A stretch of 64,000 nt of DNA from contig NC_013943.1 in the NCBI RefSeq assembly GCF_000025725.1, positions 496,001-560,000 on the forward strand, in the 5' to 3' direction. A model generated the notes under the pieces. That model was not told the origin of the DNA and did no database searches. It saw only the letters and a list, made by a program, of their open reading frames with translations. Every line of letters starts with the position of its first letter. The first letter of the stretch is position 1. A program made the position numbers and the translations under genes. Positions 49,965 through 63,369 of the stretch are shown here, piece by piece. The stretch is from Denitrovibrio acetiphilus DSM 12809 (GTDB lineage Bacteria; Chrysiogenota; Deferribacteres; Deferribacterales; Geovibrionaceae).

Positions 49965-50038
49965 CGGGGTGTAGCGCAGGTTGGTAGCGCACCTGTCTTG
50001 GGAACAGGGGGTCGAAGGTTCAAATCCTTTCACCCCGA
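49965..50038 (+). tRNA. tRNA-Pro (anticodon TGG)
   Basis: 74 bases. Acceptor CGGGGTG pairs with CACCCCG, D arm GCGC/GCGC, anticodon stem CCTGT/ACAGG with loop CTTGGGA (anticodon TGG), T arm GAAGG-TTCAAAT-CCTTT. CCA is not encoded. An integrase gene starts the next feature on the other strand, so the tRNA 3' end is the probable attachment site and remains intact after integration. Confidence 0.95.
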
Positions 50039-50059
50039 TATGTAAGATCCTTTACCAGA

Positions 50060-50086
50060 GCGGCCTCCCAAGGGTCGCTTTTTTAT
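50060..50086 (+). terminator. Terminator after tRNA-Pro
   Basis: GCGGCC (50060-50065) pairs with GGTCGC (50073-50078, one G-T pair) followed by six T. Just beyond it ATTTGTCACC is directly repeated (50085-50094 and 50096-50105), the second copy inside the integrase 3' end. Confidence 0.7.
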
Positions 50087-50093
50087 TTGTCAC

Positions 50094-51251
50094 CTATTTG
50101 TCACCGCTTTCTGCTTTTTTGGAGAAAAGGACACCTTTACGAGTGCCATCTTGACGGTTAATTCTGTTGCCATATTTCTTGAATAACATTTCCAGAGTTG
50201 AGTGACCGAGCATGTTTTTTATCCAGTTTAAATTCTCCCCTGCATCAATCATCATACAGGCGAAACTATGGCGCATCTGGTTAAGAATACGGAATCTCAT
50301 TTTAAGTGCTTTGAGACAAGGTTTATAGTAAGAATCAACGATGTTGTCTGTCTTTTTGAAGGGGTCTCCATAATGTGTTAATATCACCCACTCAGATTTC
50401 ATAAAGGTATATTTCTTGTGAGCTTCTAAGTATTCATCAAGCTCCGGGATAATATCTATAATTCTGTAATTAGATGTTTTAGTCGAGTCTTTCAATTTAT
50501 TTGCAGTCATTGTTCTTTGGACTAATATGGTATGTTTATTAAAGTCAATGTCTGACCACTTTAGAGCAAGCACCTCGCCTATTCTCATTCCAGTATAAAA
50601 TCCTATAGCATATAATACGGTTATGTGTGGGTGGTTCTTTTTTGTCCATTTAAGAATTTGTTCAACTTCACTTTTTTCAAACGGATCAATCTTTTCAGAC
50701 CCTATTTCAGGTTTGTCTATATATTCGGCAGAATTTTTTTCAAGAATGTCATCGGCAACACCAGCCTGTAATACGCTATATAGTACGCCTATATAATTAG
50801 ATATCGTCTTAGGTGATAATTCGGATTTCGAGATGTATGTCTGTATGTGAGATGGTTTAATTTGATTTAGCGGCATATTACCGAAAGTTTCACACAAAGC
50901 CTTGACAGCAGTTTTGTATGCTTTTGAAGTGGAGTATGCAATGTTCGGCTCTTTCAGGTCGTACCATTGCCAAGCATATGTTCCAAATGATACTTCACTT
51001 GAGACATTCGCAATTCCCAGTTTTTTAAGTGTTGCTGATTTTGGGAAGTAATCCTGATATCGAAAGCTGCTTTCATTAATTTTACGGTCAATCTCGCTTA
51101 CAAATGCTCTTGCTGCCTTGCAGTTTCTGCATTTGCAATCACTCTTTCCGGTGTCGCAATAGTATGGTGTGTTTTCGAACCTTTTAATGCTCAGGTAGTT
51201 AAATATAGCTTGTATTCTGTTTTTTTTGCCACGCTTTCTTATGCCGCCCAT
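50094..51251 (-). CDS. Tyrosine recombinase integrase
   Basis: 385 residues. The catalytic domain shows YTGMRIGEVLALKWSDI (first Arg), NQMRHSFACMMIDAGE (second Arg; the usual HxxR His is Asn, as in some phage integrases), LGHSTLEMLFKKY (His and the nucleophile Tyr). The SAM-like core-binding domain is about 85-190. The N-terminal arm domain contains a compact Cys cluster (CDTGKSDCKCRNC, about 32-44) that may bind zinc. It abuts the tRNA, the classic position for an element-encoded integrase. Confidence 0.93.
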   Translation of the reverse strand: MGGIRKRGKKNRIQAIFNYLSIKRFENTPYYCDTGKSDCKCRNCKAARAFVSEIDRKINESSFRYQDYFPKSATLKKLGIANVSSEVSFGTYAWQWYDLKEPNIAYSTSKAYKTAVKALCETFGNMPLNQIKPSHIQTYISKSELSPKTISNYIGVLYSVLQAGVADDILEKNSAEYIDKPEIGSEKIDPFEKSEVEQILKWTKKNHPHITVLYAIGFYTGMRIGEVLALKWSDIDFNKHTILVQRTMTANKLKDSTKTSNYRIIDIIPELDEYLEAHKKYTFMKSEWVILTHYGDPFKKTDNIVDSYYKPCLKALKMRFRILNQMRHSFACMMIDAGENLNWIKNMLGHSTLEMLFKKYGNRINRQDGTRKGVLFSKKAESGDK

Positions 51252-51261
51252 TAATATTATA

Positions 51262-51498
51262 TTACACTACTTCTGCTAATTTTGGTGCTAAATCTTTCTT
51301 TATCTGCGGATAATAAAATGTCAGAGTGCGGCCTGCACGGGTAAAATGTATCTCTTCTTTCAATGAACCACGTTTTATCAGGTCATCGATGTAGTCTGTT
51401 GATCTGCAGAGCTCTTCTGAAAGCCTTTGTTTTGTCATGAAGTCGGGCTTAGGTGCCTCGTATATCTCGTTTATTACGATAGGTCGTTTTTCGTTCAT
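51262..51498 (-). CDS. Excisionase-like small DNA-binding protein
   Basis: 78 residues. MTKQRLSEELCRSTDYIDDL looks like a winged-helix/MerR-like N-terminal recognition helix, followed by a short wing (FTRAGRTLTFYYPQIKKDL). Such proteins act as Xis/AlpA factors. It lies ten bases upstream of the integrase gene and reads the same way. Confidence 0.65.
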   Translation of the reverse strand: MNEKRPIVINEIYEAPKPDFMTKQRLSEELCRSTDYIDDLIKRGSLKEEIHFTRAGRTLTFYYPQIKKDLAPKLAEVV

Positions 51499-51524
51499 TA
51501 TTGAGACCTCAGTTATAATGAATT

Positions 51525-51707
51525 TTAATTGCGTCTATTAGAATCACTTATTTTTATAATGGCATCTTCAAGCTGTTTTTTTACTTGCTCGGCTTCTATT
51601 CTGGTATCAAATTCAATGACTTTGCCGCCGGAAGAGCAAAGGCATGATTTTTTGCCAAGCTTGTAGATTATGTTATATTTGCCATAGCTGTTCTTAAGTA
51701 AATTCAT
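51525..51707 (-). CDS. Hypothetical small protein (possibly leaderless)
   Basis: 60 residues from the ATG at 51707. It resembles a small beta-rich domain (YGKYNIIYKLGKKSCLCSSG) plus a helix. No family recognised. A consensus promoter whose -10 ends six bases before the ATG implies a leaderless message. First gene of the presumed xis-int operon. Confidence 0.5.
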   Translation of the reverse strand: MNLLKNSYGKYNIIYKLGKKSCLCSSGGKVIEFDTRIEAEQVKKQLEDAIIKISDSNRRN

Positions 51708-51712
51708 AACCA

Positions 51713-51767
51713 ATTAAAATCTAAAAACTTTAGAATGTCAAATGAAAAATCTATAAAAAATAGATTT
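51713..51767 (-). promoter_or_regulatory. Repressed promoter of the integrase operon with two palindromes
   Basis: On the minus strand TTGACA (51736-51741), a 17-base spacer and TTTAAT (51713-51718). Just upstream is the operator AAATCTA-N7-TAGATTT (51747-51767); a second palindrome TCTAAA-N3-TTTAGA (51720-51734) fills the spacer. The same operator occurs on the other side of the repressor gene. Confidence 0.75.
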
Positions 51768-51782
51768 ATTTGTTTTTGATTT

Positions 51783-52232
51783 TTATTTGTTTTGGGTATT
51801 TAACTTTTGAAGAGAGTATTCTTTATTGATTTGTTTTGCTATTTCGGAAACGCCTTCAGGGTCAAGTTTTGACAGCTTATCAAGACTTTCTTTTATTTCA
51901 TGGTTAAGGGTCAGCAGGATCGTTTTTATTAATTGTAATGTATCGTTAGGGATTGGCGTGTTTATGTTTCTTATAGTGTTTATAAGGAGAGCTTTTTCTG
52001 AGCTTAACCCACCATTAATAGCTTCGTCTAGCGATATATATCCAAAGAAATATTCGATAGGCGTCTCCAGTTCTTCAGCCATTTTCTTGAGTAGGTCGAG
52101 GTTTGGCTCTGATCTGCCTTTAACATAAGTGTTTATGCTTTTAGAGTTTACGCCAATAAGGTCAGCCAGTTCTGTCTGCTTAATGTTCTTTACGTCAATA
52201 AGTGCTTTGAGTCTTTCTGCAAAAGTATCCAT
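51783..52232 (-). CDS. XRE-family phage-type repressor
   Basis: 149 residues. The HTH (about 1-65) reads KQTELADLIGVNSKSINTYV and RSEPNLDLLKKMAEEL. The C-terminal part is helical without a LexA-like Ser-Lys protease, so induction is probably not by self-cleavage. There is no ribosome site; a -10 like CATAAT at 52238-52243 would place the transcript start at the ATG, so a leaderless mRNA is possible. Identical operators flank the gene. Confidence 0.82.
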   Translation of the reverse strand: MDTFAERLKALIDVKNIKQTELADLIGVNSKSINTYVKGRSEPNLDLLKKMAEELETPIEYFFGYISLDEAINGGLSSEKALLINTIRNINTPIPNDTLQLIKTILLTLNHEIKESLDKLSKLDPEGVSEIAKQINKEYSLQKLNTQNK

Positions 52233-52302
52233 ACAGAATTATGCCAGTATTCTTAATAAAGTAAATCTTAATATTGTAGAAATAATTTTATCAAATTCTA
52301 TA

Positions 52303-52331
52303 AAATCTAAAAATAATAGATTTTTTATAAT
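52303..52331 (+). promoter_or_regulatory. Operator and promoter of the replication operon
   Basis: AAATCTA-N7-TAGATTT at 52303-52323 has the same arms and spacing as the operator at 51747-51767. A TATAAT -10 box follows at 52326-52331 with no good -35, so the operator sits where RNA polymerase must bind. Confidence 0.7.
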
Positions 52332-52361
52332 CTGTGTGTTATTTCTTTATCAGGAGGAAAC

Positions 52362-52562
52362 ATGTCTTTAAAGAAATTATTTAAGGAACTCATCATCACG
52401 GAATCTCAGAAGTCTTTGGCAGAACAGATTCCAATCAATGAGAAAACATTTTCTGCGAATCTTACAGGGCGTAGCCGTCCAACCATTCGAAATGCTCGTA
52501 AGTATATATTATTTCTAGAACGCAAAGGTATCAGGACATCTCTAAACGAAATATATGAATAA
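52362..52562 (+). CDS. Small Cro-like HTH protein
   Basis: 66 residues with AGGAGG before the ATG. The sequence SQKSLAEQIPINEKTFSANLTGR resembles a helix-turn-helix. It is divergent from the repressor, behind the shared operator, and overlaps the replication gene by eight bases. A Cro/CII-type role is likely from position. Confidence 0.6.
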   Translation: MSLKKLFKELIITESQKSLAEQIPINEKTFSANLTGRSRPTIRNARKYILFLERKGIRTSLNEIYE

Positions 52563-54930
52563 TAAATATCTTATCAATGAACCGCCACTGCTGATCCTTC
52601 CTTCACTTGCCAAATCAATTGGACTTAATGAAGGTATCCTTCTACAGCAGATTCATTACTGGCTTAGAACATCAAAACATGACAGGGGCGGTTATAGATG
52701 GATATATAATACTTATGCCCAGTGGCTTGAGCAGTTTCCTTTCTGGTCAGAAAAGACTCTCAGGCGGACTGTAAAGAGACTTGAGGATAAAGAGATTATA
52801 ATCTCAACCGTAGAATTCAATCAAAGCATTAATAAAACCAAGTGGTATAGAATAGACTACAAAGTGCTTGCAGACTATACAGGCTTTAGTGACGGCACAG
52901 ACCTGATTATTGATGAATATCCGCTTCTGTTTCAGCCGTCGCTTGCTGTTAGATATGGTCTGAACGAGGCTATATTTCTTCAGCAACTCCACTACTGGCT
53001 GAGCTACAGCAGCAAAGAGAGAGGAGGGTGCCTTTGGGTTGTGAATAAATACAAAACCTGGCTTGATCAGTTCAGCTTTTGGAGCGTTGATACTCTCAAA
53101 AGAACTATAAAAAGCCTCACCGAAAAGGAAGCTATAATTAACACTGATGAATACAATGATTCGGTGATCAGCAATTTACGCTGGCTGACAATTAATTACG
53201 ATAAATTTAATAAACCGTCAGTGCAGATTGACCAGTCGTCAGAGCAAAGTGACCTTTCGAGGGTGCAGATTGACCAGACGCTAGTGCAATCTGACCAGTC
53301 GCACGCTGAAAATATCGCGTCAGTGCAAAATGACCGGACGTGTGTGCAAAGTGACCAGTCGTCAGTGCAGAATGACCACATCGCCAGTGCAGATTGGCCG
53401 GATGGTCAGTGCAAAATGACCAGTTCTCATATATATACAGAGACTAATACAGAGACTACAGAGAATAAGGCACAAGAAGTCAATCTCGAAGAATCAGACC
53501 GTTTACAAAAAATGATAAAATTTGACTCCGAATCTGTAAAAGCGGCTTTTGATAAAGCTGTGAATTATTATTTAAAGCTTATCGACCCGCAAAAGACAAT
53601 AAGACGAAATGATAGCAGACTCGACGATATTCAAAACCTTATGGCTGAATACGGAGCCGATGCTGTTGAATTGATTTTTGACAGCGTAAAAAAATCTGAT
53701 TTTCTGTTAGGAAATTCTGGGAAGTTTATACCTTCATTCAGTTTCATTCTGAAAAACGCAGGTAAAATAATCTCAGGACAGTATGAATCAGAATCAGAGT
53801 CTGTGTATGAAAAAGCCCAGCGATGCTGTGAAGCACATAAAGATTGCTCTGTGGTCACTGATAATTATCCGGCAAGACCTCATTGCAGATACTGCGATCA
53901 GTTCATAAACAAAGATTTGCGGCCAAAGAAAACACAGGAAGAAATCGACGATGATATGTTTGAAGAGTGCAAGTCCAGAGCTTACTGCGTAGTTAAAAAG
54001 CTTCGTATGTCTACACCTTTTCCTTACTGCGGCAAATGCCCGAAAAATGATTTTGCTCAGAAAGAAAAAGGTGAAGCGGAGCTCATGAAAAAGGCTGCCG
54101 AATGTTATGCAAGCTGCAAAGGGTGCTGTTTTGTAAAGGTCATGGAGACAGAGTCGCTTGATTATTGCAAATTTTGCCCAGGGAACAGCACTGACCCGGA
54201 TGATTCATATAAAACTATTAAAGTCGACCCTTCGGACAGTGATGCTGTGTGGTCTGCTTCCTATGAATGGACAAGCAAGAGCGACAAAAAAATAAAGGGT
54301 TTTATAAAGGATTTTGAGATTTTCAGCACGTACTCTTTGAATGATTACATGCAGGAGGTTCTGATTGTCGTTTATGAAGTTTTGCAGGAACTGCTTGCGG
54401 AGTGTGACGGCAGCGTGCCTGTGAGCAAATTTGAAGAGCGCATATGGAATAATTTTCGAAACAGATTTACAAAAAGCATGCAGACTGTTCCGGCTATGAG
54501 AGATGTTTTTAAAGGAGGTAACAAGTCCGCATGTGTTTTTGAGGAATACACCGGAAATGAATTATCCGAAAATGATTCTGAGCCTGAAAATCGCCGTTTA
54601 AACGAAGAAATTATCAAAACACTGCTTGGGATACTCACCGTAAGGGAAGAGGAGGTTTTAGACTATGTTCTGGGCTTCACAGGTAGAGGGAAGCTGTCTC
54701 AGAGTGAGGCGGCGGAACTTATGGGCACCACTAGAGATAATGTGGCCGTTATACAGAAAAAGGCGGTAGATAAGATTACGGCATTTTGTAAAGAGCAAGA
54801 GATCGACGGCTCAAGCACGCTGGAGACCATCAAGTTTAAAATCCGCACCTATCAAAAACAGAAATTCAAAGACCCTTGTAAATACCAATTATTTGAGATA
54901 GGTAGTTTGATTAATCAGATTGCTGGATGA
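52555..54930 (+). CDS. Multidomain replication initiator with sigma-factor-like C-terminus
   Basis: 791 residues in one uninterrupted frame. Residues about 6-110 and 117-220 are a tandem duplication of a phage-type winged-helix domain (GLNEGILLQQIHYWL versus GLNEAIFLQQLHYWL). Residues about 223-290 are encoded by the iteron array. About 325-410 resembles the DnaD/DnaT-like helicase-loader end of phage replisome organisers (KKSDFLLGNSGKFIPSFSFI). Three Cys units, roughly C-x5/6-C-x12/13-C-x2-C, lie at about 424-448, 470-493 and 516-540. The last 200 residues look like sigma regions 2 and 4 (LTVREEEVLDYVLGF, LSQSEAAELMGTTRDNVAVI). I know no such combination; initiator function is well supported, the sigma-like part is inference. 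Confidence 0.8.
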   Translation: MNNKYLINEPPLLILPSLAKSIGLNEGILLQQIHYWLRTSKHDRGGYRWIYNTYAQWLEQFPFWSEKTLRRTVKRLEDKEIIISTVEFNQSINKTKWYRIDYKVLADYTGFSDGTDLIIDEYPLLFQPSLAVRYGLNEAIFLQQLHYWLSYSSKERGGCLWVVNKYKTWLDQFSFWSVDTLKRTIKSLTEKEAIINTDEYNDSVISNLRWLTINYDKFNKPSVQIDQSSEQSDLSRVQIDQTLVQSDQSHAENIASVQNDRTCVQSDQSSVQNDHIASADWPDGQCKMTSSHIYTETNTETTENKAQEVNLEESDRLQKMIKFDSESVKAAFDKAVNYYLKLIDPQKTIRRNDSRLDDIQNLMAEYGADAVELIFDSVKKSDFLLGNSGKFIPSFSFILKNAGKIISGQYESESESVYEKAQRCCEAHKDCSVVTDNYPARPHCRYCDQFINKDLRPKKTQEEIDDDMFEECKSRAYCVVKKLRMSTPFPYCGKCPKNDFAQKEKGEAELMKKAAECYASCKGCCFVKVMETESLDYCKFCPGNSTDPDDSYKTIKVDPSDSDAVWSASYEWTSKSDKKIKGFIKDFEIFSTYSLNDYMQEVLIVVYEVLQELLAECDGSVPVSKFEERIWNNFRNRFTKSMQTVPAMRDVFKGGNKSACVFEEYTGNELSENDSEPENRRLNEEIIKTLLGILTVREEEVLDYVLGFTGRGKLSQSEAAELMGTTRDNVAVIQKKAVDKITAFCKEQEIDGSSTLETIKFKIRTYQKQKFKDPCKYQLFEIGSLINQIAG
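53221..53426 (+). repeat. Nine-copy iteron array, candidate in-gene replication origin
   Basis: Copies of an 18-base core close to GTGCAAAATGACCAGTCG start at 53221, 53242, 53263, 53284, 53323, 53344, 53365, 53387 and 53409, that is every 21-22 bases (two helical turns) with one 39-base step. Copies 1-7 are in the gene's first frame, copy 8 in the second, copy 9 in the third, so DNA rather than protein is conserved. AT-rich sequence with CATATATATACAG follows directly and could be the unwinding region. Confidence 0.85.
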
Positions 54931-54957
54931 CATTTAATAAGTCGTAGCTTATAAATA

Positions 54958-54988
54958 TTGACAATTAAAATAAGTTATATATTATAAT
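54958..54988 (+). promoter_or_regulatory. Promoter-like sequence before mobile mystery protein A
   Basis: TTGACA at 54958-54963 and TATAAT at 54983-54988, with a rather long 19-base spacer in very AT-rich DNA. Confidence 0.5.
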
Positions 54989-55021
54989 TAATATGAAACA
55001 AAATAAGCTAAAGGTTATAAT

Positions 55022-55492
55022 ATGAACGGGAAGTACAAATTGCTTGAGCTGGAGCAAATAGATAAAAAGCTTGAAAAATACAAATTGCTCTTAGGGGAAC
55101 AGAGGCCAAAGAAAGGCTGGATACACACCATAAGAAAAGCACTTGGGATGTCCGGCAGGCAGCTTGCCAGTCGTATAGGTGTCAGTCAGCCGAGAGTCGC
55201 TGAGATCGAAAAAAAAGAAATGGATAACTCATTAACTCTAAAAACTATGCAACAGGTGGCTGAAGGACTTGGCTGCGAATTTGTTTATGCGTTTGTGCCT
55301 AAGACCTCTATCAAGGAGATGCTTACAAAAAGAGCCGAAGAGATTGCGTCAGCACAAACCAATAGTGCCGCCGTCACTATGAATCTTGAGGCTCAGGGGT
55401 TGACTGAGACAGAGGTGGAGCTGATTAAAAAAGAAACTGTTCAGGAACTTGTTGCCGCTAGACCAACAAAATTATGGAACGATATTAAATAA
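55022..55492 (+). CDS. Mobile mystery protein A (XRE regulator)
   Basis: 156 residues. The start LLELEQIDKKLEKYKLL, the RPKKGWIHTIRKALGMSGRQ HTH and the line LTLKTMQQVAEGLGCEFVYA followed by FVPK match the mobile mystery protein A family, usually paired with a Fic-domain mobile mystery protein B. No Fic gene follows here, so this copy is an orphan. The family's role is not established; the pair looks like a toxin-antitoxin system. Confidence 0.82.
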   Translation: MNGKYKLLELEQIDKKLEKYKLLLGEQRPKKGWIHTIRKALGMSGRQLASRIGVSQPRVAEIEKKEMDNSLTLKTMQQVAEGLGCEFVYAFVPKTSIKEMLTKRAEEIASAQTNSAAVTMNLEAQGLTETEVELIKKETVQELVAARPTKLWNDIK

Positions 55493-55555
55493 TAATACCT
55501 TTGGGTAGCCACTTATTTATTCTGAAGAGGTAGTTTTAAGTTAACAGCATATAAT

Positions 55556-56338
55556 TTATTTTTTAGCAATAATATGCTTTGTGTTATTATATAGAACAAA
55601 AAAATTATCGTGAGGAATTTCTGGAAAATTGATATTTGGATAATGTTTCATGTCTATTACAAGATTGTTACGAATAAGGGATAAATCTAGTTTATTTGCT
55701 TTAGGTACTACGGTTGAAGTATTTTTATCAAGGATAAAGAAAGCAATCGGATGAAATTTCAAAATGTGTCCTGCTATTACGCTATTATCATTTGGTAATT
55801 TTGCAGAATAAATGTATTGAATAATTTTAGTGGTATTGTTCGGATAAAACCAATAATAAAAATCAAAATTTTTTAACTTTTTGCCATTGATATAGTAATC
55901 ACGTAATGATTCAAATATGGGAAAGTGGTTTTGCAAAGGTTCTTTTAACTCATTTTTGGGGTCATCAGAGTAAAAAACTAAACTTAATAAATGTCCGATC
56001 AAAGCTTTTATCAAAGAATGAGTGCTGACTTCAATGATAATGGAGCTTAGAGAGGGTATATTCAATGCAACAGACAGTTTGTTATAGATAACTTCTAACT
56101 CTTTGTCATATCTGCCAAGTTTTGAATTACAATCTCTACATATAGTTTTAAATTTAAGTCCATTTCTGGATGTAAATTCTCTTCCATTTTCAGATACTAT
56201 TTTTACAGGAGATTTATTCCCAAAACATTTCGGAGGTATATGGTCTTCAGATAAATCTTTTTCTTCTCCACACAATCTACAGAATCCGTGCTGTGAGCCT
56301 TCATGTAATTTTCGGATATATGATTTTCCATGAACCAT
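55556..56338 (-). CDS. HNH-nuclease-like protein
   Basis: 260 residues from the ATG at 56338 (GGAG upstream; the frame is open four codons further). The N-terminal third has CRLCGEEKDLSEDHIPPKCF and later CRDCNSKLG: two CxxC pairs around DHI and a conserved Asn, an HNH zinc fold. The rest is AT-rich and unrecognised, with aromatic segments such as FDFYYWFYPNN. It could be a restriction or defence nuclease or a homing enzyme; it is read in the same direction as the adjacent intron fragment but lies beyond a terminator. Confidence 0.65.
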   Translation of the reverse strand: MVHGKSYIRKLHEGSQHGFCRLCGEEKDLSEDHIPPKCFGNKSPVKIVSENGREFTSRNGLKFKTICRDCNSKLGRYDKELEVIYNKLSVALNIPSLSSIIIEVSTHSLIKALIGHLLSLVFYSDDPKNELKEPLQNHFPIFESLRDYYINGKKLKNFDFYYWFYPNNTTKIIQYIYSAKLPNDNSVIAGHILKFHPIAFFILDKNTSTVVPKANKLDLSLIRNNLVIDMKHYPNINFPEIPHDNFFVLYNNTKHIIAKK

Positions 56339-56420
56339 TATGGTCTCCATACATGATGATCTAAATCTGCTAGGTTAGTTTAAATAATTTAGCATCTTTC
56401 TTGTATTATTTGAAATATTA

Positions 56421-56449
56421 AAAATGGGAGCCGCCGAAGCAGCTCCCAT
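56421..56449 (-). terminator. Intrinsic terminator ending the intron-fragment transcript
   Basis: ATGGGAGC (56424-56431) pairs with GCTCCCAT (56442-56449), with a small inner GC helix, and on the minus strand continues into TTTTAATA. Confidence 0.8.
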
Positions 56450-56455
56450 GAGGTA

Positions 56456-56516
56456 GGACATGTGCCTGACATGTCCGGTATTCAAAACCGAGTCCCATAA
56501 GAAATGGACTCGGTTT
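56456..56516. other. Two strong hairpins after the intron fragment
   Basis: GGACATGT-N5-ACATGTCC at 56456-56476 and an 11-bp stem AAACCGAGTCC/GGACTCGGTTT at 56485-56516. With the terminator they form three consecutive stems. Confidence 0.6.
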
Positions 56517-56569
56517 CTGCACACAACTAGTTTCTAAAAACCATTTGTAAACAGCTCAAAATATAGAGC

Positions 56570-56626
56570 CTAGATCCCTTCGTCCAGCCGACTTTTAATC
56601 AGCTCGTTTGTCCTTCGCTTACACAT
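56570..56626 (-). pseudogene. Truncated intron-encoded protein start
   Basis: ATG at 56626 begins MCKRRTNELIKSRLDEGI and stops at TAG (56570). Its place right after the domain III region is where a reverse transcriptase/maturase starts; nothing of the RT domain remains. Confidence 0.45.
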
Positions 56627-57143
56627 TGAGGAAGCCACTCCCCTCTGCTGCCGCAGGCTCTTAACCTGAACGGTCGGACGCAAACGTGATATCTCTATCA
56701 GGCTTACTACGAATCCTCCGTGCCCATCTTGGCAATGCCAAAATGGTTACATCCCCGATTCAAACAAAATGCCAACAGCTTTACCTGTCCCGACATCGTG
56801 AGCTTTTACCTCACACATCCCATATAACACCTTAGATGGCTCCTGTACTTTGATTTTCAGCGTCGGCGCAGGTGCCGGCTTTATTGCAGTTTTCAGGCTA
56901 CGAAGTGTCACAGATCGCCTTACTCGCACCTACTGATCAAAGTTTTATACAGAGCTTCCTCTCGTCATCATAGTGTTTCGGGTCGCCCTCACGGGCTTTA
57001 AACCGACTGCTCCAACTGTATAGGTTTATATGGATGACCAATCCTTTAATCCCTCTACAGCCGCCGGTTCCCTTGCAGGTTAATACTGCTCGCTGAGCAT
57101 ATATTCCCCTGACCAAATGGATGTTTGTTTTATCCAGGCGCAC
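56570..57143 (-). mobile_element. Group II intron 5' fragment (domains I-III, start of IV)
   Basis: Read on the minus strand it opens with GTGCG at 57143-57139, the group II 5' consensus. Near 56725-56698 it has GGGCACGGAGGATTCGTAGT followed by AAGCCTGA, closely like the segment of Lactococcus Ll.LtrB that precedes domain IV, followed by an AGAGGGG stretch as in that intron. The maturase gene that should follow is cut after 18 codons. No domain V lies downstream; the only one is upstream at 57228-57262. Confidence 0.7.
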
Positions 57144-57176
57144 CGCTTCAAAGCGATATATCATGTGAACTCAACT

Positions 57177-57262
57177 GTCGGGTCACACCCCACTGGCTAG
57201 GTGGGTAGCTCCCCGAAGCTGGTTCCCGAACCGGACGTGCGTCTTTCGATCGCATCCGGCTC
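57177..57262 (-). mobile_element. Group II intron 3' fragment (domains V and VI)
   Basis: Domain V (57262-57228, minus strand) opens GAGCCGGATGCG, has a GAAA tetraloop and ends ACGTCCGGTTC. AGC of the catalytic triad is present; the upper stem has one extra A. Domain VI follows: TCGGG and CCCAC pair with GTGGG and CCCGA, a candidate branch-point A lies seven bases from the end, and the 3' end is ...CGAC at 57177. Confidence 0.78.
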
Positions 57263-57431
57263 TCCAGCTCTCCCCTTTATCTCACAAGAATGGCGAAATT
57301 ATTCATCGAAGCGGGTCAGGCTCCGGAAAATGTGAGCTTCAGGGGTTCTGAGCGTCTCAAATGGTTTTAAAAAACCAGGCATAAATCTATATCATCAGCC
57401 CAAAAGTCGGGCTGTTGGCTGGGGACTCTGC

Positions 57432-57505
57432 CTCGGATTAAATCAGGCGTTACATCTGTTCCTCCAGTGGACGGCTATACGCCGTAATAAGGAACTTAAT
57501 CCGAG
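57432..57505. repeat. Long three-step hairpin
   Basis: CTCGGATTAA (57432-57441) pairs with TTAATCCGAG (57496-57505), inside it GTTCC (57458-57462) with GGAAC (57491-57495), and at the tip ACGGC-TATAC-GCCGT region (57471-57485). The rest of 57263-57431 holds no gene I can support; it is probably remnant domain IV sequence. Confidence 0.6.
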
Positions 57506-57589
57506 TGAATCCCACAATAAAAAGTAGTGTTAATCAGTTTGAAGTGAATCAAGAGTTGTCTGTATATCCTTCACGGATGACAGAAATCA

Positions 57590-57898
57590 GTGGATATCGA
57601 AATCCAATTTATTGCACCAGAAAATTCTACAAAAACTACAGATATAATCTATCCGGTCACAGGCTTTGTCAAGCCTGCCCAATTTTTTATTATCCACTTC
57701 TTTTATGGTCAGCAAAGTGCTGACACTAAAAAGAAATTATTAGTTGATGGTATCCATTTACTGCGAAACGCATTAATAAGATATGAAAGCAGCAGACAAC
57801 AGTTATTATCTTGTAAGACGTGCACAGCTCAGAATCGTCATGCGTACGTATTTCCGCAATGGCGAGCTGTACGATATAATGAACCGTTCAGCTTTTAA
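57590..57898 (+). pseudogene. Possible frameshifted upstream part of the next gene
   Basis: An open frame from a GTG without ribosome site; residues 1-65 (for example IAPENSTKTTDIIYPVTGF, KKKLLVDGIHLLRNALIRYE) look protein-like, the rest after about 57783 is a shadow of the following gene. Together with the frame at 57505 it suggests a gene interrupted by one or two frameshifts. It may also be chance. Confidence 0.3.
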
Positions 57899-58811
57899 AC
57901 AGACAGCGGAAAAGCTCACGGACAAGTATTTTCACAGGTCAGGTGCAACGGTTTATGACGAGGTTAAAGAGCTTTATCAGCTATATCTCGCACTCGCACC
58001 GAGCATGCAAAAGATCAAAAACTCATTCAAAGTAGACTGGACAAAAGGTCACGCCATAAGCTGGCTTCGCAGGCTCTTTAATGGCAGAGTACGGCATTGG
58101 TATTACATCCATGCAGAATATGAGCGGAAGCATGACCCTGAGCAGTTGCTTCGCAGTTTCAGAGATCACGGCATCACTGATAAAAGGTTTCTGGATGAGG
58201 CTATGGAAAAATACCTGTGCTTTTGGGCATCCGAAGGGCTGAAAGGCAGCCTTGCAAACTGTATCTTTGACCCGTTTATATACAGGGTGAAAGATACTGG
58301 CATCCGCATAGGAAATTCCGTTATTGAGACCTCAAAACACAAGCTTGATGGGTATTATAACATCTTTGAAAAGCCTATAGAGATCATGGGCTACCATGTC
58401 GTTGTATACGAGAAATCAGGCAGAACACACATCAATGTGACTATCAGGCAAAGCGTCATAGACGACTTTAAGAAACGCTGCGAGATCATCATATCCACCA
58501 GAACCTCGCCACAGTATAAGTTGGTTCAGCTAGCCAGCCTTGTGAGTCAGCTTCTGGAGACTGCAAAATATGCGAAGGACTCATTTTATCAGATAAGAGG
58601 TCTCCAGCTATGGACAGATAAAAAGTTTCGCAAACTGTCCGGTACAGAGAAGAAATTCAAAGCGATCATAAGCATGATGACGACAAGGTTTATCGAGAAA
58701 GTTGTGTCTAAATACACTTATCAGCGGACAAACTTCTTTTGGGATAAAAACCATAACGACATACCAGAAAAGACATTCCAAATCTATTTTAGTCCATACA
58801 GGGAACTATGA
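57783..58811 (+). CDS. Hypothetical protein
   Basis: 342 residues, basic and rich in Tyr, Arg and Lys, without signal peptide or membrane segment. I recognise no family. Notable parts are RRAQLRIVMRTYFRNGELYD, WLRRLFNGRVRHWYYIHAEY and EKPIEIMGYHVVVYEKSG. A stop lies just before the ATG and the ribosome site is weak, so the true start may lie upstream across a frameshift. Its stop overlaps the next ATG by four bases, so the two form a coupled pair. Confidence 0.65.
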   Translation: MKAADNSYYLVRRAQLRIVMRTYFRNGELYDIMNRSAFKQTAEKLTDKYFHRSGATVYDEVKELYQLYLALAPSMQKIKNSFKVDWTKGHAISWLRRLFNGRVRHWYYIHAEYERKHDPEQLLRSFRDHGITDKRFLDEAMEKYLCFWASEGLKGSLANCIFDPFIYRVKDTGIRIGNSVIETSKHKLDGYYNIFEKPIEIMGYHVVVYEKSGRTHINVTIRQSVIDDFKKRCEIIISTRTSPQYKLVQLASLVSQLLETAKYAKDSFYQIRGLQLWTDKKFRKLSGTEKKFKAIISMMTTRFIEKVVSKYTYQRTNFFWDKNHNDIPEKTFQIYFSPYREL

Positions 58812-59233
58812 AAACCCATAGGTATCGCAAGTACCTCACCAGCTATCATTTTGAGATACGGCATAAGTTTGTGAAAGGCTTCAATAGGCTTTATCAGCAG
58901 GGAAGGGTGAATGTATTGGATATGAATACTATCCCTGATGGGATGGGTTTCCCTGAGTGGCACAGACCAGTACCAAATGAATTTGTTTACGCTGGTATAA
59001 GCGATCGCAAGGCAGATATTTTGGTTCTTACAAACAATGATTTCCGCAAGATTTGTGACTATATCTACACACCGAAGGTTATTGTCGTTAGGGTTCTCTT
59101 TGAATTTTCTGCATTGGTGATTTCCGGCATAGATGGCGAAATAATCCATCACAGATTCCCATACCGCACAAAACAGTGTTTAGGCATTGAGAGGAAACTC
59201 TTTAAACACTCATTAAGGAGTGATTCTAAATAA
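58808..59233 (+). CDS. Hypothetical protein, partner of upstream gene
   Basis: 141 residues. No known family. Internal sequence such as DILVLTNNDFRKICDYIYTP and VRVLFEFSALVISGIDGEII suggests an alpha/beta fold. The ATG overlaps the preceding stop (ATGA). The last 17 codons lie within copy 1 of the 52-bp direct repeat, so the present C-terminus may have been created by the recombination that brought in the neighbouring toxin cassette. Confidence 0.6.
   Translation: MKTHRYRKYLTSYHFEIRHKFVKGFNRLYQQGRVNVLDMNTIPDGMGFPEWHRPVPNEFVYAGISDRKADILVLTNNDFRKICDYIYTPKVIVVRVLFEFSALVISGIDGEIIHHRFPYRTKQCLGIERKLFKHSLRSDSK
59174..59225 (+). repeat. 52-bp direct repeat, copy 1
   Basis: 47 of 52 bases match the copy at 60437-60488. 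It contains AGTGTTT...AAACACT and CACTC...GAGTG inverted pairs that compete. Bases 16 and 27 are G/C here and C/G in copy 2, a compensatory change. Confidence 0.85.
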
Positions 59234-59738
59234 ACTCAACTAACCTTGGGCTATTGGCTTCGTACAAATAAATTCTATGAAAAACCTTCACTTCATTTTG
59301 AATCGCTTCCATAATCTTATTTCTCTCTGTAATGACGATCTCTTCCAGTGTTGCATAAGGGTTAAATATTCCAACGATTAATATACCAGAACCATATTTA
59401 GCATAAGTGTTACACATCGTTTGTTTGCAATATTTATTTAAAATGATCTCTTTTAATATTTCTCCATAGTTATCATCTGATGCATTTTTTACCTGACTTG
59501 GTATCGGTCTATGAGGAATATCATCAGCAACATAGCTAGTTATGCTCTCAGCAATCTCAGGACATAGAAATGCATCAGTTATTTCTATCCAAGTTTTATT
59601 GGCATTAATTTCGATTATTGCATCTGGAGGATCTGGCCTTTCCAAAACTTTAAAGCTATAGCCTTTGGATTCAATGTATATCCTGAACCGATTAATCACA
59701 GCTAGCTCATGCTCATCTTTTAATTCATTTCTTTTCAT
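59226..59738 (-). CDS. PD-(D/E)xK-like protein downstream of vapBC
   Basis: 170 residues from the ATG at 59738, which overlaps the vapC stop by four bases. PPDAIIEINANKTWIEITDA looks like a PD...ExK nuclease core in which the Lys is Thr. The rest, with SGILIVGIFNPYATLEEIVI, fits an alpha/beta fold. It could be a nuclease or an inactive relative added to the toxin-antitoxin operon. The family is not one I recognise. Confidence 0.55.
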   Translation of the reverse strand: MKRNELKDEHELAVINRFRIYIESKGYSFKVLERPDPPDAIIEINANKTWIEITDAFLCPEIAESITSYVADDIPHRPIPSQVKNASDDNYGEILKEIILNKYCKQTMCNTYAKYGSGILIVGIFNPYATLEEIVITERNKIMEAIQNEVKVFHRIYLYEANSPRLVEFI

Positions 59739-60136
59739 AACGTCACCCAATTCTCGACCTTGATACCTGATACACGGGAGAATTCACGTTCGTTATTGGT
59801 GACTATGATTGCGTTCATGGCTTTGGCGTGTGCCGCTATCGGGAGATCCATTGAGCCTATGGTATTGCCGTTCTTCTCAAGCTCTGCACGGATGATGCCG
59901 TATTCATAAGCCGCAGCATCGTCAAATGGCAATATCTCCAGAGGTGATAGAAACATCGCCAGAGCGTCGCTGTTTTGCTCCACACGCTGGCTTTTGTTTA
60001 CACCGTAATGTAATTCCGCTGCTGTGATGCTTGAGATACACAGCTCAGAAATATTGAAAGTTTTGAATTTCTCGATGATCTCCGCAGGTCTGCGCTTTAT
60101 AATATAAATACAGATATTGGTATCCAGCATATACAT
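59735..60136 (-). CDS. vapC: VapC-type PIN-domain toxin
   Basis: 133 residues. PIN residues are in order: MLDTN (first Asp), AAELHYGV (Glu), MDLPIAAHA (third acidic) and VTNNEREF (Asn/Asp region). These proteins cut tRNA or rRNA. The gene follows the antitoxin by two bases. Confidence 0.93.
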   Translation of the reverse strand: MYMLDTNICIYIIKRRPAEIIEKFKTFNISELCISSITAAELHYGVNKSQRVEQNSDALAMFLSPLEILPFDDAAAYEYGIIRAELEKNGNTIGSMDLPIAAHAKAMNAIIVTNNEREFSRVSGIKVENWVTL

Positions 60137-60138
60137 GG

Positions 60139-60366
60139 CTAGAAGCTCTCCCTGTCATCATAGTCAGGCTGTTGCCTGTCAGACATAAAGGAATCATCAA
60201 ACATATCAAGACTTTTTTCAAAGTTCGACCAGATGTCTGCCTTCGGCAGCAGGATAATCATGTTGCCTACCTTACGGATATAGACCTCATTCGTATTTAA
60301 CTGGTATTCTTTTGGAAGCCTCACAGCTTGGCTGTTTCCACTTTTAAAGACTCTTGCCTTATCCAT
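60139..60366 (-). CDS. vapB: VapB-type antitoxin (AbrB fold)
   Basis: 75 residues. KARVFKSGNSQAVRLPKEYQ is the swapped-hairpin AbrB/SpoVT DNA-binding domain of VapB; the acidic C-terminus (DYDDRESF) would wrap the toxin. GAGGTGA precedes the ATG. It should repress its own operon through the repeats at 60379-60402. Confidence 0.92.
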   Translation of the reverse strand: MDKARVFKSGNSQAVRLPKEYQLNTNEVYIRKVGNMIILLPKADIWSNFEKSLDMFDDSFMSDRQQPDYDDRESF

Positions 60367-60378
60367 GATTCACCTCAC

Positions 60379-60402
60379 GTATATACAATGATGTATATAC
60401 AA
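60379..60402 (-). promoter_or_regulatory. vapBC operator repeats
   Basis: GTATATACAA occurs twice with a 14-base period (60379-60388 and 60393-60402), each with a palindromic GTATATAC core, 12 bases before the vapB ATG. Confidence 0.7.
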
Positions 60403-60436
60403 TTAAAATCAAGTGAATTATTGATAATTGCTCAAT

Positions 60437-60488
60437 CAGTGTTTAGGCATTCAAAGAAAACTGTTTAAACACTCATTAAAGAGTGATT
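60437..60488 (+). repeat. 52-bp direct repeat, copy 2
   Basis: Partner of 59174-59225. The two copies bracket exactly the vapB-vapC-nuclease-like cassette. Confidence 0.85.
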
Positions 60489-60500
60489 AGTGAAATATAT

Positions 60501-60528
60501 ATTTTCCAATTTCTGGAAACTGGAAAAT
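60501..60528. repeat. Inverted repeat
   Basis: ATTTTCCA at 60501-60508 and TGGAAAAT at 60521-60528, with a further TTTCCA/TGGAAA pairing inside. Confidence 0.5.
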
Positions 60529-60582
60529 AGCTTTCTGTTAATTATATATGTGTTAATCTGTGATTGACTTTTAATTCAGTTT

Positions 60583-60623
60583 CCCAACTTGTCTCCCAAC
60601 TTTAGGTTGGGTGACAGGTTGGG
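60583..60623. repeat. 18-bp hairpin made of CCCAAC/GTTGGG units
   Basis: CCCAACTTGTCTCCCAAC and GTTGGGTGACAGGTTGGG pair over 18 positions with one mismatch and one G-T pair around a five-base loop. No T tract follows on either strand, so it is not an obvious terminator. The remainder of 60489-60674 is AT-rich and empty. Confidence 0.65.
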
Positions 60624-60674
60624 TGTAAAAGTGACCTTAAGGAAGTTTTTTGTGAAATGAAAACCTTTGCTGCC

Positions 60675-61901
60675 TTATCTTGTATGTTTTCGAATTATCT
60701 GGTCAATCGTTTTAATTGTGCTGTCGCTAATGTTCAGACTGGATGCAGTATTTTTCCATTTCATCGCTGATGCTATAACCTGGTCTATAATTCGTTCTGG
60801 TTTCTTTATGTTGGCTTTTTTTCCTAATTCTTTCAAATGTGATATCGCTGGTTTAAGGCTCTCACCGGCAACAGTCATGCTCTGATAGCCGTTCGGTCCT
60901 GATGAAAATGTCAGGTCATAGGCAGGAGAAAGTTTCCATTCCATATTTTGATATAGAAATGAAAAGTTTTTGCTGTGATCATCCCTGTTGTGCATTATTA
61001 CGTTGAAGCATGCTAGTCTGAATGCGGCCTCCACTTCTCTCATGTCTTTTGTGAGTGCCTGTGTGACTTTCAGCAGGTCGGAATAATCCAGTGATGGAAA
61101 CCTGTAATCTGAGTGGATAAGTCCGCAAAGAGAATGCATATGAATACGTCTGCCGTTATCCCTGTCGAATCTCTGCACTCCGAAATAACTTCCGGAAACT
61201 GTGTCGAAAAGATAAGTCTCAGGCATATTTATTCCGGAATCTTTAGCTATGACGCTGTATGCATATTCTATTCTGCCGGAGTCGGCATCATCGAATCTTG
61301 AGTTAAACTTAATCAGCCAGTCCTCGTAACCATTTGGATGGTTATCTGTTCTGGACATTATATGCTTTTTGTCAGGACTTACCTTTGCAGTGATTTTTGG
61401 TCTGGCACCACCTGATGAACCAGCAAGCTGCTTCAGCTTCAGCAGTGCGTCGTCTCCTTCGCCTTCCAAAATCTGCTGCATCTCTTTTGCAAGTTTCATA
61501 AGGTCAAGATTCTCAGCATGTTGGACATCTTCTGAATACTCAGGTTCGTATGACAATGCCCCCATTCCGTATTTACCGACGTGGCTCAGCCTGTCCAACG
61601 GTGTAAGTAGGTGATGGCTTATCCCATATTTAGCTACCTGACGGTCAAGAAGCATTCTGCCCCAGCCGTCAGGCAGACTGTCATTGAATATACCGTGCAG
61701 ACCATCAAACGCATTAGTATCAGCAGATACAGCATTTGGCTGCAGCGACAGTTTGAAAGGAGACAGTTCAAAACCCTCAGCTATAAAGTCAGGGGAATAT
61801 TCAAACCAGATTTTTCTATCTCTGGAGGCAAGTCTGCCCATATGATATTTTTTATCAGCATGATAAAAAACATTAAGCAGTTGTGTGGGCTTATGATTCA
61901 T
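60675..61901 (-). CDS. hipA: HipA-family serine/threonine kinase toxin
   Basis: 408 residues. GSSGGARPKITAKV is the Gly-rich loop, DWLIKFNSRFDD the ATP-binding region, FNVIMHNRDDHSKNFSFLY the catalytic loop and LSPAYDLTFS the metal-binding motif. HipA kinases inhibit aminoacyl-tRNA synthetases and cause growth arrest. Its ATG overlaps the hipB stop (ATGA). Confidence 0.92.
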   Translation of the reverse strand: MNHKPTQLLNVFYHADKKYHMGRLASRDRKIWFEYSPDFIAEGFELSPFKLSLQPNAVSADTNAFDGLHGIFNDSLPDGWGRMLLDRQVAKYGISHHLLTPLDRLSHVGKYGMGALSYEPEYSEDVQHAENLDLMKLAKEMQQILEGEGDDALLKLKQLAGSSGGARPKITAKVSPDKKHIMSRTDNHPNGYEDWLIKFNSRFDDADSGRIEYAYSVIAKDSGINMPETYLFDTVSGSYFGVQRFDRDNGRRIHMHSLCGLIHSDYRFPSLDYSDLLKVTQALTKDMREVEAAFRLACFNVIMHNRDDHSKNFSFLYQNMEWKLSPAYDLTFSSGPNGYQSMTVAGESLKPAISHLKELGKKANIKKPERIIDQVIASAMKWKNTASSLNISDSTIKTIDQIIRKHTR

Positions 61902-62194
61902 TTCTTTCGTCCTCTCTTTCTTGTCTTATCCTGCGATAAGATCGCATCCAATGATTTTAGCTGCTCTTGTTTATCAAATAAATTTGCAAAATTATCCAGT
62001 AAGTTCAGTGCAAGACAAAGCTTAAGAAGCGACTCTAAAGAAATCTGTCCTGTTGATTCAAACTTCTTCAATGTGCCGAGGCTGACCCCAGATCGTTCGG
62101 CAAGACCTTCCTGGGTGAGGTTTTTTTCCAGACGGGTGTTTCTCAATGAGTTTCTGATATATTCAGCCATCTCTTCTAAAGTTATAAAAGTCAT
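61898..62194 (-). CDS. hipB: HipB-like XRE antitoxin
   Basis: 98 residues from the ATG at 62194 (AGGG eight bases upstream). The HTH is KNLTQEGLAERSGVSLGTLK; the C-terminus is basic (KTRKRGRKK). An open TTG at 62224 would lie almost at the predicted transcript start. It should repress the operon through repeats at 62193-62203 and 62234-62244. Confidence 0.88.
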   Translation of the reverse strand: MTFITLEEMAEYIRNSLRNTRLEKNLTQEGLAERSGVSLGTLKKFESTGQISLESLLKLCLALNLLDNFANLFDKQEQLKSLDAILSQDKTRKRGRKK

Positions 62195-62262
62195 TATAGT
62201 ATCCCTAAAAGGCAAAATATTCAACTTGTAGATATTATAGTATCTATTATTTGAAGTGTCAA
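62193..62262 (-). promoter_or_regulatory. Consensus promoter and operators of hipBA
   Basis: On the minus strand TTGACA (62257-62262), exactly 17 bases, then TATAAT (62234-62239). ATTATAGTATC is repeated at 62234-62244 (over the -10) and 62193-62203 (over the hipB start), 41 bases apart, about four helical turns. Confidence 0.88.
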
Positions 62263-62311
62263 TTGTGATGACTATTTAGCCTGTAATTAATCAATGATAT
62301 TTATTAAGAGT

Positions 62312-62363
62312 GTTTAATCACTGTTCGGACACTTATAAAAAAGTTAAAAAAAACTGATTAAAC
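62312..62363. promoter_or_regulatory. Inverted repeat upstream of parM-like gene
   Basis: GTTTAATCA (62312-62320) and TGATTAAAC (62355-62363) flank AT-rich DNA. It may be an operator or part of the partition site bound by the RHH or XRE protein. Confidence 0.45.
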
Positions 62364-62412
62364 CGTTTACCCCCTTATCCATTATCAGAATAGAAAGCAA
62401 AGGAGGTATTGC

Positions 62413-63369
62413 ATGATAGGGATAGATGTAGGGTATGGAGATGTGAAAGCCGTCTATATGGATGTCGGCGAACTGAAATATTTCAAGCTGCCGACGGCGG
62501 TAGCTTATGCGCCGATGAACAGCATTGACATTGCTGACGAGGCTGAGGAGAGATACAGCTTTCAGGGACGGGAATACATAGTCGGCGAATCAGCCAGATT
62601 CGGAGCTTTTTCAACGAGGAGCTTTGATTTCCTGAAAAAGTATGCTCCGCTTTTTATCCATCACACACTTAAAGTGCTTAGGCTTGTGCCGTCATACGTG
62701 GCGACTGGCTTGCCGCTTGGTCTCTTCAACAGAAAAGATGAGATGACCAAAGAGCTGACAACTGCACAGGTGGACGGCAACACAATCAAGGCAGAATTCA
62801 GTATGTTCCCGCAGGCAGTGGGCATCCTGCTCGATTACCGGATGGATGATGCAGGCAAAGTGAAAGCCGATACTGCCAAAAACGGCATCGTATCAGACAT
62901 AGGGTTTAACACCATAGATGTACTTTGTTTTGAGAAGGGGACGGCTATAAGGTCGGACGCTAAAACGCTGGACAAGTTCGGCATATCTAAGATCGTGCTG
63001 GAACTGGTGGAACTGATTAACAGAGAACATGGTATACAGCTTTCTGATCAGGAAGCGAAAGATGTTTTCCTTGCAGGACGTATGAATGTTTACGGCAACA
63101 AAATAGACCTGACTGAGGCCATTAGGAACATCACAGAGATGTATTTTGACGAAGTGATGCATAATATCAGAAGCCTTTGGGACAAACGTCTCCAGAGGGC
63201 AGATTTACTGTTGCTCGCTGGCGGAGGCGCAGTTACTATTGCCAAATATGTTCCTTCTGAATATGCTAAGATTGTCAAAGTTCCCGAACGGTCAGAGTTT
63301 GCGAACGCCAGAGGCTATTTGAAGGCTTTAATGGCGAAGCAAGAACAGGCTTTAAAGGCGGATAAATAA
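62413..63369 (+). CDS. ParM/StbA-like actin-family partition ATPase
   Basis: 318 residues with AAGGAGG before the ATG. Actin-fold motifs: MIGIDVGYGDVKAVY (phosphate 1), VSDIGFNTIDVLCFE (phosphate 2) and LLLLAGGGAVTIA (adenosine). ParM-type filaments push plasmid copies apart. Its presence in a chromosomally integrated element points to a plasmid-like phase. A terminator separates it from the RHH gene. Confidence 0.88.
   Translation: MIGIDVGYGDVKAVYMDVGELKYFKLPTAVAYAPMNSIDIADEAEERYSFQGREYIVGESARFGAFSTRSFDFLKKYAPLFIHHTLKVLRLVPSYVATGLPLGLFNRKDEMTKELTTAQVDGNTIKAEFSMFPQAVGILLDYRMDDAGKVKADTAKNGIVSDIGFNTIDVLCFEKGTAIRSDAKTLDKFGISKIVLELVELINREHGIQLSDQEAKDVFLAGRMNVYGNKIDLTEAIRNITEMYFDEVMHNIRSLWDKRLQRADLLLLAGGGAVTIAKYVPSEYAKIVKVPERSEFANARGYLKALMAKQEQALKADK

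What the first reader, a model, noticed from the sequence alone, without database searches (positions are those of the whole stretch)
56570..57262. Scrambled group II intron: domains V-VI precede domains I-III
On the minus strand a well-formed domain V and VI, with branch-point A and 3' end at 57177, is followed after only 33 bases by a GTGCG 5' end and domains I-III at 57143. The outer halves are missing. It could be a collapsed tandem insertion. If the two parts still fold together, the order matches a permuted intron-exon, which would release the 33-base segment as a circle.
Basis: partly seen in the sequence, partly recalled or inferred. Interest (0 to 1): 0.75.

Follow-up and report, generated by a model that had tools for sequence, protein, structure and literature searches.

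The report
Circularly permuted group II ribozyme variant
A stretch of bacterial DNA encodes an intact self-splicing RNA whose parts are in rotated order, so it probably cuts a tiny RNA circle out of itself; such rotated introns have been known since 2021, but this one belongs to a distinct, so far undescribed branch with its own companion genes.

Summary
On the minus strand, about 57374-56532, lies an ~840-nt RNA gene with domain order D5-D6-linker-D1-D2-D3, closed by a long 5'-3' helix that stands where D4 would be. It is not a scrambled relic: five RNAs in all (this one, one in another genus of its family, three copies in two genomes of another phylum) share the permuted order and keep the structure with many compensatory changes. 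Domain VI was misdrawn: the branch A is 57171 and the 3' end 57165, so the linker (predicted circle) is 57164-57144, 21 nt rather than 33; the others have 14, 14, 23 and 165 nt. The genome (Denitrovibrio acetiphilus, Deferribacterota) has no other group II domain V. This matches the "CP group II ribozymes" of Roth et al. 2021, which back-splice an RNA circle in vitro, but departs from their consensus: canonical domain V, GUGCG rather than GGGCG 5' splice site, and a different conserved neighbour gene in place of detectable AcpG. I file it as a new variant of a known kind. Activity is inferred. Whether the permutation arose independently is open.

The parts
56532..57374 (-). whole permuted group II RNA (closing helix, P2, D5, D6, linker, D1, D2, D3, closing helix)
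   Evidence: MFE z = -7.07; homologues and covariation
57346..57374 (-). 5' strand of the 5'-3' closing helix (D4 equivalent)
   Evidence: Duplex with the 3' tail, -29 to -40 kcal/mol in all five RNAs; 0.6% of shuffled tails reach the mean
57281..57336 (-). P2-like hairpin just upstream of D5; apical hairpin 57325-57307 with loop CUGACCC
   Evidence: Compensatory pairs with G005; MFE fold; similar hairpins seen by eye in the other three loci
57228..57262 (-). domain V: AGC triad, GAAA loop, AC bulge, extra bulged A
   Evidence: RF00029 40.5 bits; 100% of helix cells paired in 5 RNAs, 5 of 14 pairs with changes on both sides
57167..57225 (-). domain VI, branch-point A at 57171; intron 3' end (AC) at 57165
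   Evidence: Basal helix kept in 5 RNAs with compensatory changes; MFE fold
57144..57164 (-). 21-nt linker AUGAUAUAUCGCUUUGAAGCG, predicted RNA circle
   Evidence: Bounded by AY 3' end and GUGCG 5' end; homologous linkers 165, 14, 14 and 23 nt
57131..57143 (-). 5' splice site GUGCGCCUGGAUA, start of domain I
   Evidence: GUGCG followed by YYUGGAUA conserved in all five
56832..57012 (-). domain I core; conserved CUGUGACAC[U/C]UCG, EBS1 candidate 56907-56901
   Evidence: 24 of 36 predicted pairs have compensatory changes; model R3. EBS1-IBS1 pairing not established
57032..57044 (-). domain I hairpin GGAUUGGUCAUCC, possible kissing partner of the P2 loop
   Evidence: 5-bp complementarity in three RNAs; permutation control 0.10-0.20, so only suggestive
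56571..56816 (-). domains II and III up to the start of the D4-equivalent helix (D2 hairpin 56814-56798)
   Evidence: 34 of 69 pairs with compensatory changes
56537..56561 (-). 3' strand of the closing helix
56424..56449 (-). terminator-like hairpin after the RNA; another hairpin with a short T run at 56515-56484
   Evidence: Pattern scan; hairpin 56515-56484 located
57783..58811 (+). 342-aa ORF, divergent from the RNA, conserved companion gene
   Evidence: 48% identical in G005, 33% in G409, G073 homologue by hhalign P 97%, E 1e-10; no relation to Thermus AcpG detected
58808..59233 (+). 141-aa ORF overlapping the previous one by 4 nt, second companion gene
   Evidence: Homologues in G005 (35%) and probably G409 (17%) in the same place

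Best explanation
This is an intact, stand-alone gene for a naturally circularly permuted group II ribozyme. The break lies in the loop of D4, where ordinary group II introns carry their protein gene, so the D4 stem is formed by the two ends of the RNA and brings D5-D6 against D1-D3. Shown here: permuted order, structure kept by selection in five RNAs across two phyla, intact D5, bulged branch A, AY and GUGCG boundaries. Inferred: the 2'-OH of A57171 attacks the phosphate before G57143; the freed 3' end of the linker attacks the phosphate after C57165. This releases the 21-nt linker as a circle and leaves a branched, T-shaped RNA. It sits in a plasmid-like integrated element beside a conserved divergent two-gene operon that may supply a cofactor or share in its function.
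For: D5 hit. Whole-region fold z -7.07. 81% identical permuted homologue in another genus. A D1-only model built from those two found a third RNA in another phylum, which proved to be permuted in the same order when read. A junction model then found two more at 95 and 77 bits, while canonical introns scored at most 50. Compensatory changes in D5, D6, D1, D2 and D3. Closing helix with different but complementary sequences in each RNA. No ORF of 80 aa or more on the minus strand inside the RNA. Companion ORFs conserved at the loci. Published precedent with the same order and in vitro products.
Against: No experiment. EBS1-IBS1 pairing could not be demonstrated (permutation fraction 0.30). Linkers of 14-23 nt are shorter than the 32-86 nt circles listed for tested CP RNAs and may strain circularisation. 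D5 bulge is AC here but CU or CC in the distant homologues. No function is known even for the published class.
Confidence: 0.85

Rival explanations
1. A dead relic: two tandem or neighbouring group II introns whose outer halves were deleted, leaving D5-D6 of one before D1-D3 of the next by accident.
For: D5 resembles canonical proteobacterial introns; group II introns often nest and fragment (general knowledge).
Against: Same order in five loci over two phyla with compensatory changes; outer ends pair with each other; no other group II D5 in this genome; D1 type absent from the 393 other sampled genomes of G073's phylum, many of which carry canonical introns.
Confidence: 0.03
2. A permuted group II RNA used not for its circle but as a trans-acting ribozyme: the branched product, or the unspliced RNA with a companion protein, cleaves or reverse-splices into target RNA or DNA, possibly in plasmid maintenance or defence. 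(Compatible with the best explanation for structure and chemistry; it differs on what the reaction is for.)
For: Linker sequence and length are poorly conserved (14-165 nt) while the catalytic body is; companion ORFs conserved; plasmid-like surroundings; Roth et al. propose trans action.
Against: No target known; companion protein model too poor to read (pLDDT 54); only a weak, below-cut-off Pfam match to a restriction enzyme family (E 0.012).
Confidence: 0.35
3. A structured group II-derived RNA that has lost splicing chemistry and serves as a scaffold or regulator.
For: Conservation shows structure, not catalysis; distant copies have a CU or CC bulge in D5; no EBS1-IBS1 proof.
Against: AGC triad, bulged A, GUGCG and AY ends, all specific to chemistry, are kept in five RNAs.
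Confidence: 0.1

Closest known systems
CP group II ribozymes (Roth et al. 2021, iScience, PMC8637638)
   Same: Order D5-D6-linker-D1-D2-D3-D4; size near 900 nt; no internal protein gene; bulged branch A; stem-loop before D5; 5' and 3' ends held together; often on plasmids; divergent neighbour ORF with an overlapping smaller ORF.
   Different: D5 canonical (A-U pair in the triad, AC bulge) against unpaired A, UN bulge and a 7-bp upper helix in Thermus; GUGCG and AY boundaries against GGGCG and NU; P2 loop complementary to a D1 loop rather than demonstrably to D2; companion protein not detectably AcpG; circles of 14-23 nt in four of five; host phylum not among the three the paper names.
Canonical bacterial group II introns (Rfam RF00029)
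   Same: D5 sequence nearly that of Cupriavidus, rhizobial and G048 introns; GUGCG start; D6 basal helix with bulged A and AY end.
   Different: Order rotated; no intron-encoded protein; D1 core not matched in four canonical introns (best 6.2 bits) or in the many canonical-intron genomes sampled.
Engineered permuted intron-exon group II constructs (Jarrell 1993, as cited by Roth et al.)
   Same: Same permuted order and expected products.
   Different: Those are laboratory constructs; this is natural and conserved.

Membership tests
CP group II ribozymes (Roth et al. 2021) | domain order D5-D6-D1-D2-D3-D4 | tested here: met
CP group II ribozymes (Roth et al. 2021) | splice-site motifs GGGCG and NU around the linker | tested here: not met
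   GUGCG in all five; ends AC, AC, AU, AU, AU
CP group II ribozymes (Roth et al. 2021) | D5 with UN bulge and unpaired A of the AGC triad | tested here: not met
   Bulge AC, AC, CU, CU, CC; A-U pair in all five; Thermus CP RNAs show the published form
CP group II ribozymes (Roth et al. 2021) | no intron-encoded protein inside the RNA | tested here: met
   No minus-strand ORF of 80 aa or more inside
CP group II ribozymes (Roth et al. 2021) | P1/P2 stem-loops upstream of D5 and a P2-D2 loop pseudoknot | tested here: inconclusive
   P2-like hairpin present; its loop complements a D1 loop, permutation fraction 0.10-0.20
CP group II ribozymes (Roth et al. 2021) | AcpG gene nearby (frequent, not universal) | tested here: inconclusive
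   Divergent ORF conserved but not detectably AcpG; same two-ORF layout as in Thermus plasmids
CP group II ribozymes (Roth et al. 2021) | D1 related to the known class | tested here: inconclusive
   Model R3 gives 7-10 bits, E 0.1-0.6, at the expected place and strand in several Thermus loci
CP group II ribozymes (Roth et al. 2021) | back-splicing to circle plus branched RNA | not testable with these tools
   Needs a wet experiment
Canonical group II intron | order D1 to D6 with splice sites at the outer ends | tested here: not met
Canonical group II intron | domain V consensus | tested here: met
   RF00029 above gathering score
AcpG protein family | sequence homology to TTHC007 | tested here: not met
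   hhalign probability 0.2% or less with 5- and 9-sequence profiles; profiles are shallow, so remote homology is not excluded

The most novel reading that the evidence does not exclude
Circular permutation of group II introns arose at least twice. This lineage (Deferribacterota and a second phylum) kept a canonical active site and GUGCG splice site, makes circles as small as 14-23 nt, and acquired its own two-gene companion operon, independently of the Thermus-type CP class.
Probability: 0.3. Interest if true: 0.72.

Novelty: new variant of a known kind. Interest (0 to 1): 0.5.

Why it matters
Natural permuted group II ribozymes have no known biological role and were described as one class with one consensus. 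A second, more canonical branch with different conserved companion proteins gives an independent test of what is essential (the permuted order, closing helix, splice chemistry and a divergent two-gene operon recur; the circle sequence does not). It also offers a form whose active site can be compared directly with well-studied introns. Because the order is conserved across phyla, the permutation itself is evidently under selection.

Tried and rejected
Tandem-collapse relic: rejected because of conserved homologues and the absence of other group II D5 in the genome. D6 ending at 57177 with a 33-nt linker: rejected after the D6 helix was redrawn and found kept in five RNAs. EBS1-IBS1 at 56907-56901: complementarity of 4-6 bp in each RNA, but linkers permuted among sequences do as well 30% of the time. 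P2-D1 kissing loops: suggestive only. AcpG homology: three profile comparisons negative. Companion-protein relatives in plasmids, phages, IMG/VR and GTDB contigs: none. Pattern search in viral contigs: none. Locating the Polaromonas CP RNA on pPNAP05: not achieved; the 17-bit model match looked like chance. Integration-site repeat of the tRNA inside the window: none.

Full report
WHAT IS THERE. The window is bases 496001-560000 of a 3,222,077-bp single-contig genome. That size equals the published Denitrovibrio acetiphilus chromosome (PMC3035293), phylum Deferribacterota. Rfam recognises one group II domain V in the window, at 57264-57200 (-), 40.5 bits. The same family search over the whole genome finds only this locus, so there is no ordinary group II intron of that type here from which the locus could have been scrambled, and no intact copy for comparison within the genome.

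ANATOMY. Reading the minus strand 5' to 3': one strand of a long helix (57374-57346), a P2-like hairpin (57336-57281), D5 (57262-57228), D6 (57225-57167), AC (57166-57165), linker (57164-57144), GUGCG (57143), D1, D2 (56814-56798), D3, and the other strand of the long helix (56561-56537). Terminator-like hairpins follow at 56515-56484 and 56449-56424. The region folds much more stably than shuffled sequence (z -7.07, 20 shuffles). The fold and the comparison show instead that GAACCAGCU pairs with AGUUG[A]GUUC, leaving A57171 bulged 7 nt before the end of an AY terminus, as in canonical introns. The linker is therefore 21 nt.

HOMOLOGUES. A blastn search of 60 relatives found one relative, G005 (same family, other genus), 81% identical over D5-D6 and D1-D3 in the same permuted order, with a 165-nt linker; widening to the 51 genomes of the phylum added none. 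A covariance model of the D1 core from these two (R1), searched in 385 genomes, found a third locus in another phylum, G073. Reading its DNA showed D5-D6-short linker-GUGCGCCUGGAUA-D1 in the same order. The permuted order was not part of the query, so this is an independent confirmation. A junction model (R2) searched in 395 genomes of that phylum found a second G073 copy (95 bits) and one in G409 (77 bits); everything else scored at most 49 bits, and the canonical introns scored for comparison gave 36-50 bits with the same model. A D1 model from all five RNAs (R3) found only these loci in the same 395 genomes, although about 65 of them carry ordinary D5-D6 matches.

SELECTION ON STRUCTURE. 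In D5 and D6, 99% of cells are standard pairs, with 7 pairs changed on both sides; none of 500 shuffles reaches the covariation score. In the D1 core, 24 of 36 predicted pairs, and in D2-D3 34 of 69, have compensatory changes (the structures were predicted on the same alignments, which inflates such counts). The 5'-3' helix forms with -29 to -40 kcal/mol in every RNA although its sequence differs almost completely between most of them; only 0.6% of shuffled tails reach the mean. This is the D4 stem with its loop opened, so the break point of the permutation is where canonical introns carry their protein gene.

MECHANISM. By established group II chemistry and the published CP ribozymes (PMC8637638), the branch A would attack the 5' splice site downstream, and the freed linker end would attack the 3' splice site upstream, giving a circle and a T-shaped branched RNA. 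The required sequence features are present; the reaction is inferred. I could not establish the EBS1-IBS1 pairing. Linkers of 14, 14, 21 and 23 nt are shorter than the 32-86 nt predicted for the four CP RNAs whose circle lengths that paper lists.

COMPANION GENES. The 342-aa ORF at 57783-58811, divergent from the RNA, has homologues in the same position in G005 (48%) and G409 (33%), and a more distant one in G073 (hhalign probability 97%, E 1e-10). It is followed by a smaller ORF (4-nt overlap here and in G005) with a homologue in G005 and probably in G409. Roth et al. describe AcpG, a divergent ORF beside CP RNAs. In Thermus plasmids AcpG is likewise followed by an overlapping small ORF. Sequence profiles show no relation between the two families, so it is either remote homology beyond detection or a different gene in the same role.

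RELATION TO THE KNOWN CLASS. The published class is defined by its domain order and has consensus features GGGCG/NU and a D5 with UN bulge and unpaired A. I located the Thermus CP RNAs and confirmed those D5 features. The present lineage does not have them: its D5 is canonical and matches Rfam, which the pTT8 RNA does not. Junction model R2 scores canonical introns at 36-50 bits and Thermus D5 at 14 bits or less. On the other side, D1 model R3 gives 7-10 bits at the right place and strand in several Thermus loci (alignments shown for two: GAGUA..AGCU..ACCUCGUAG..GAAA), against at most 6.2 bits in four canonical introns. So one origin with a divergent Thermus branch and two origins both remain open; I lean to one origin. 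The paper's supplementary alignments could not be consulted, so I cannot say whether any of these five RNAs is in its list of about 290; the phyla it names do not include Deferribacterota.

VERDICT. Real, conserved and probably active; a new variant of a known kind, not a scramble and not a new category.

Noticed in passing
49965-63369: tRNA gene followed by a tyrosine-recombinase-like integrase ORF (50094-51251), XRE-type regulators, a 791-aa replication-like ORF (52555-54930) and an actin-like partition ORF (62413-63369): looks like an integrated plasmid-like element. G005 has the same replication-like and actin-like genes around its permuted RNA. No 16-nt repeat of the tRNA region elsewhere in the window.
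   Followed up: partly
55556-56350: ORF with an HNH nuclease domain (Pfam HNH_5, E 2.4e-6) directly downstream of the permuted RNA on the same strand.
   Followed up: no
59735-62224: PIN-like (59735-60136) and HipA/HipB-like (60675-61901, 61898-62224) ORFs, by reading only: candidate toxin-antitoxin pairs in the same element.
   Followed up: no
L060 and L029 (G073): One genome carries two permuted RNAs, each with the same 277-aa companion ORF (80% identical), preceded by a ribbon-helix-helix-like ORF as in Thermus acpG operons.
   Followed up: partly
L009, L018, L021, L022 (Thermus plasmids): acpG overlaps a second ORF of about 115-127 aa by 4 nt in each, and in several a CopG-type gene precedes it; the text of the 2021 paper that I read does not mention this second ORF.
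   Followed up: partly
L006:4956-5120 (G005): This linker is 165 nt, against 14-23 nt in the other four, and may hold its own hairpins; possibly an insertion in the circularised segment.
   Followed up: no
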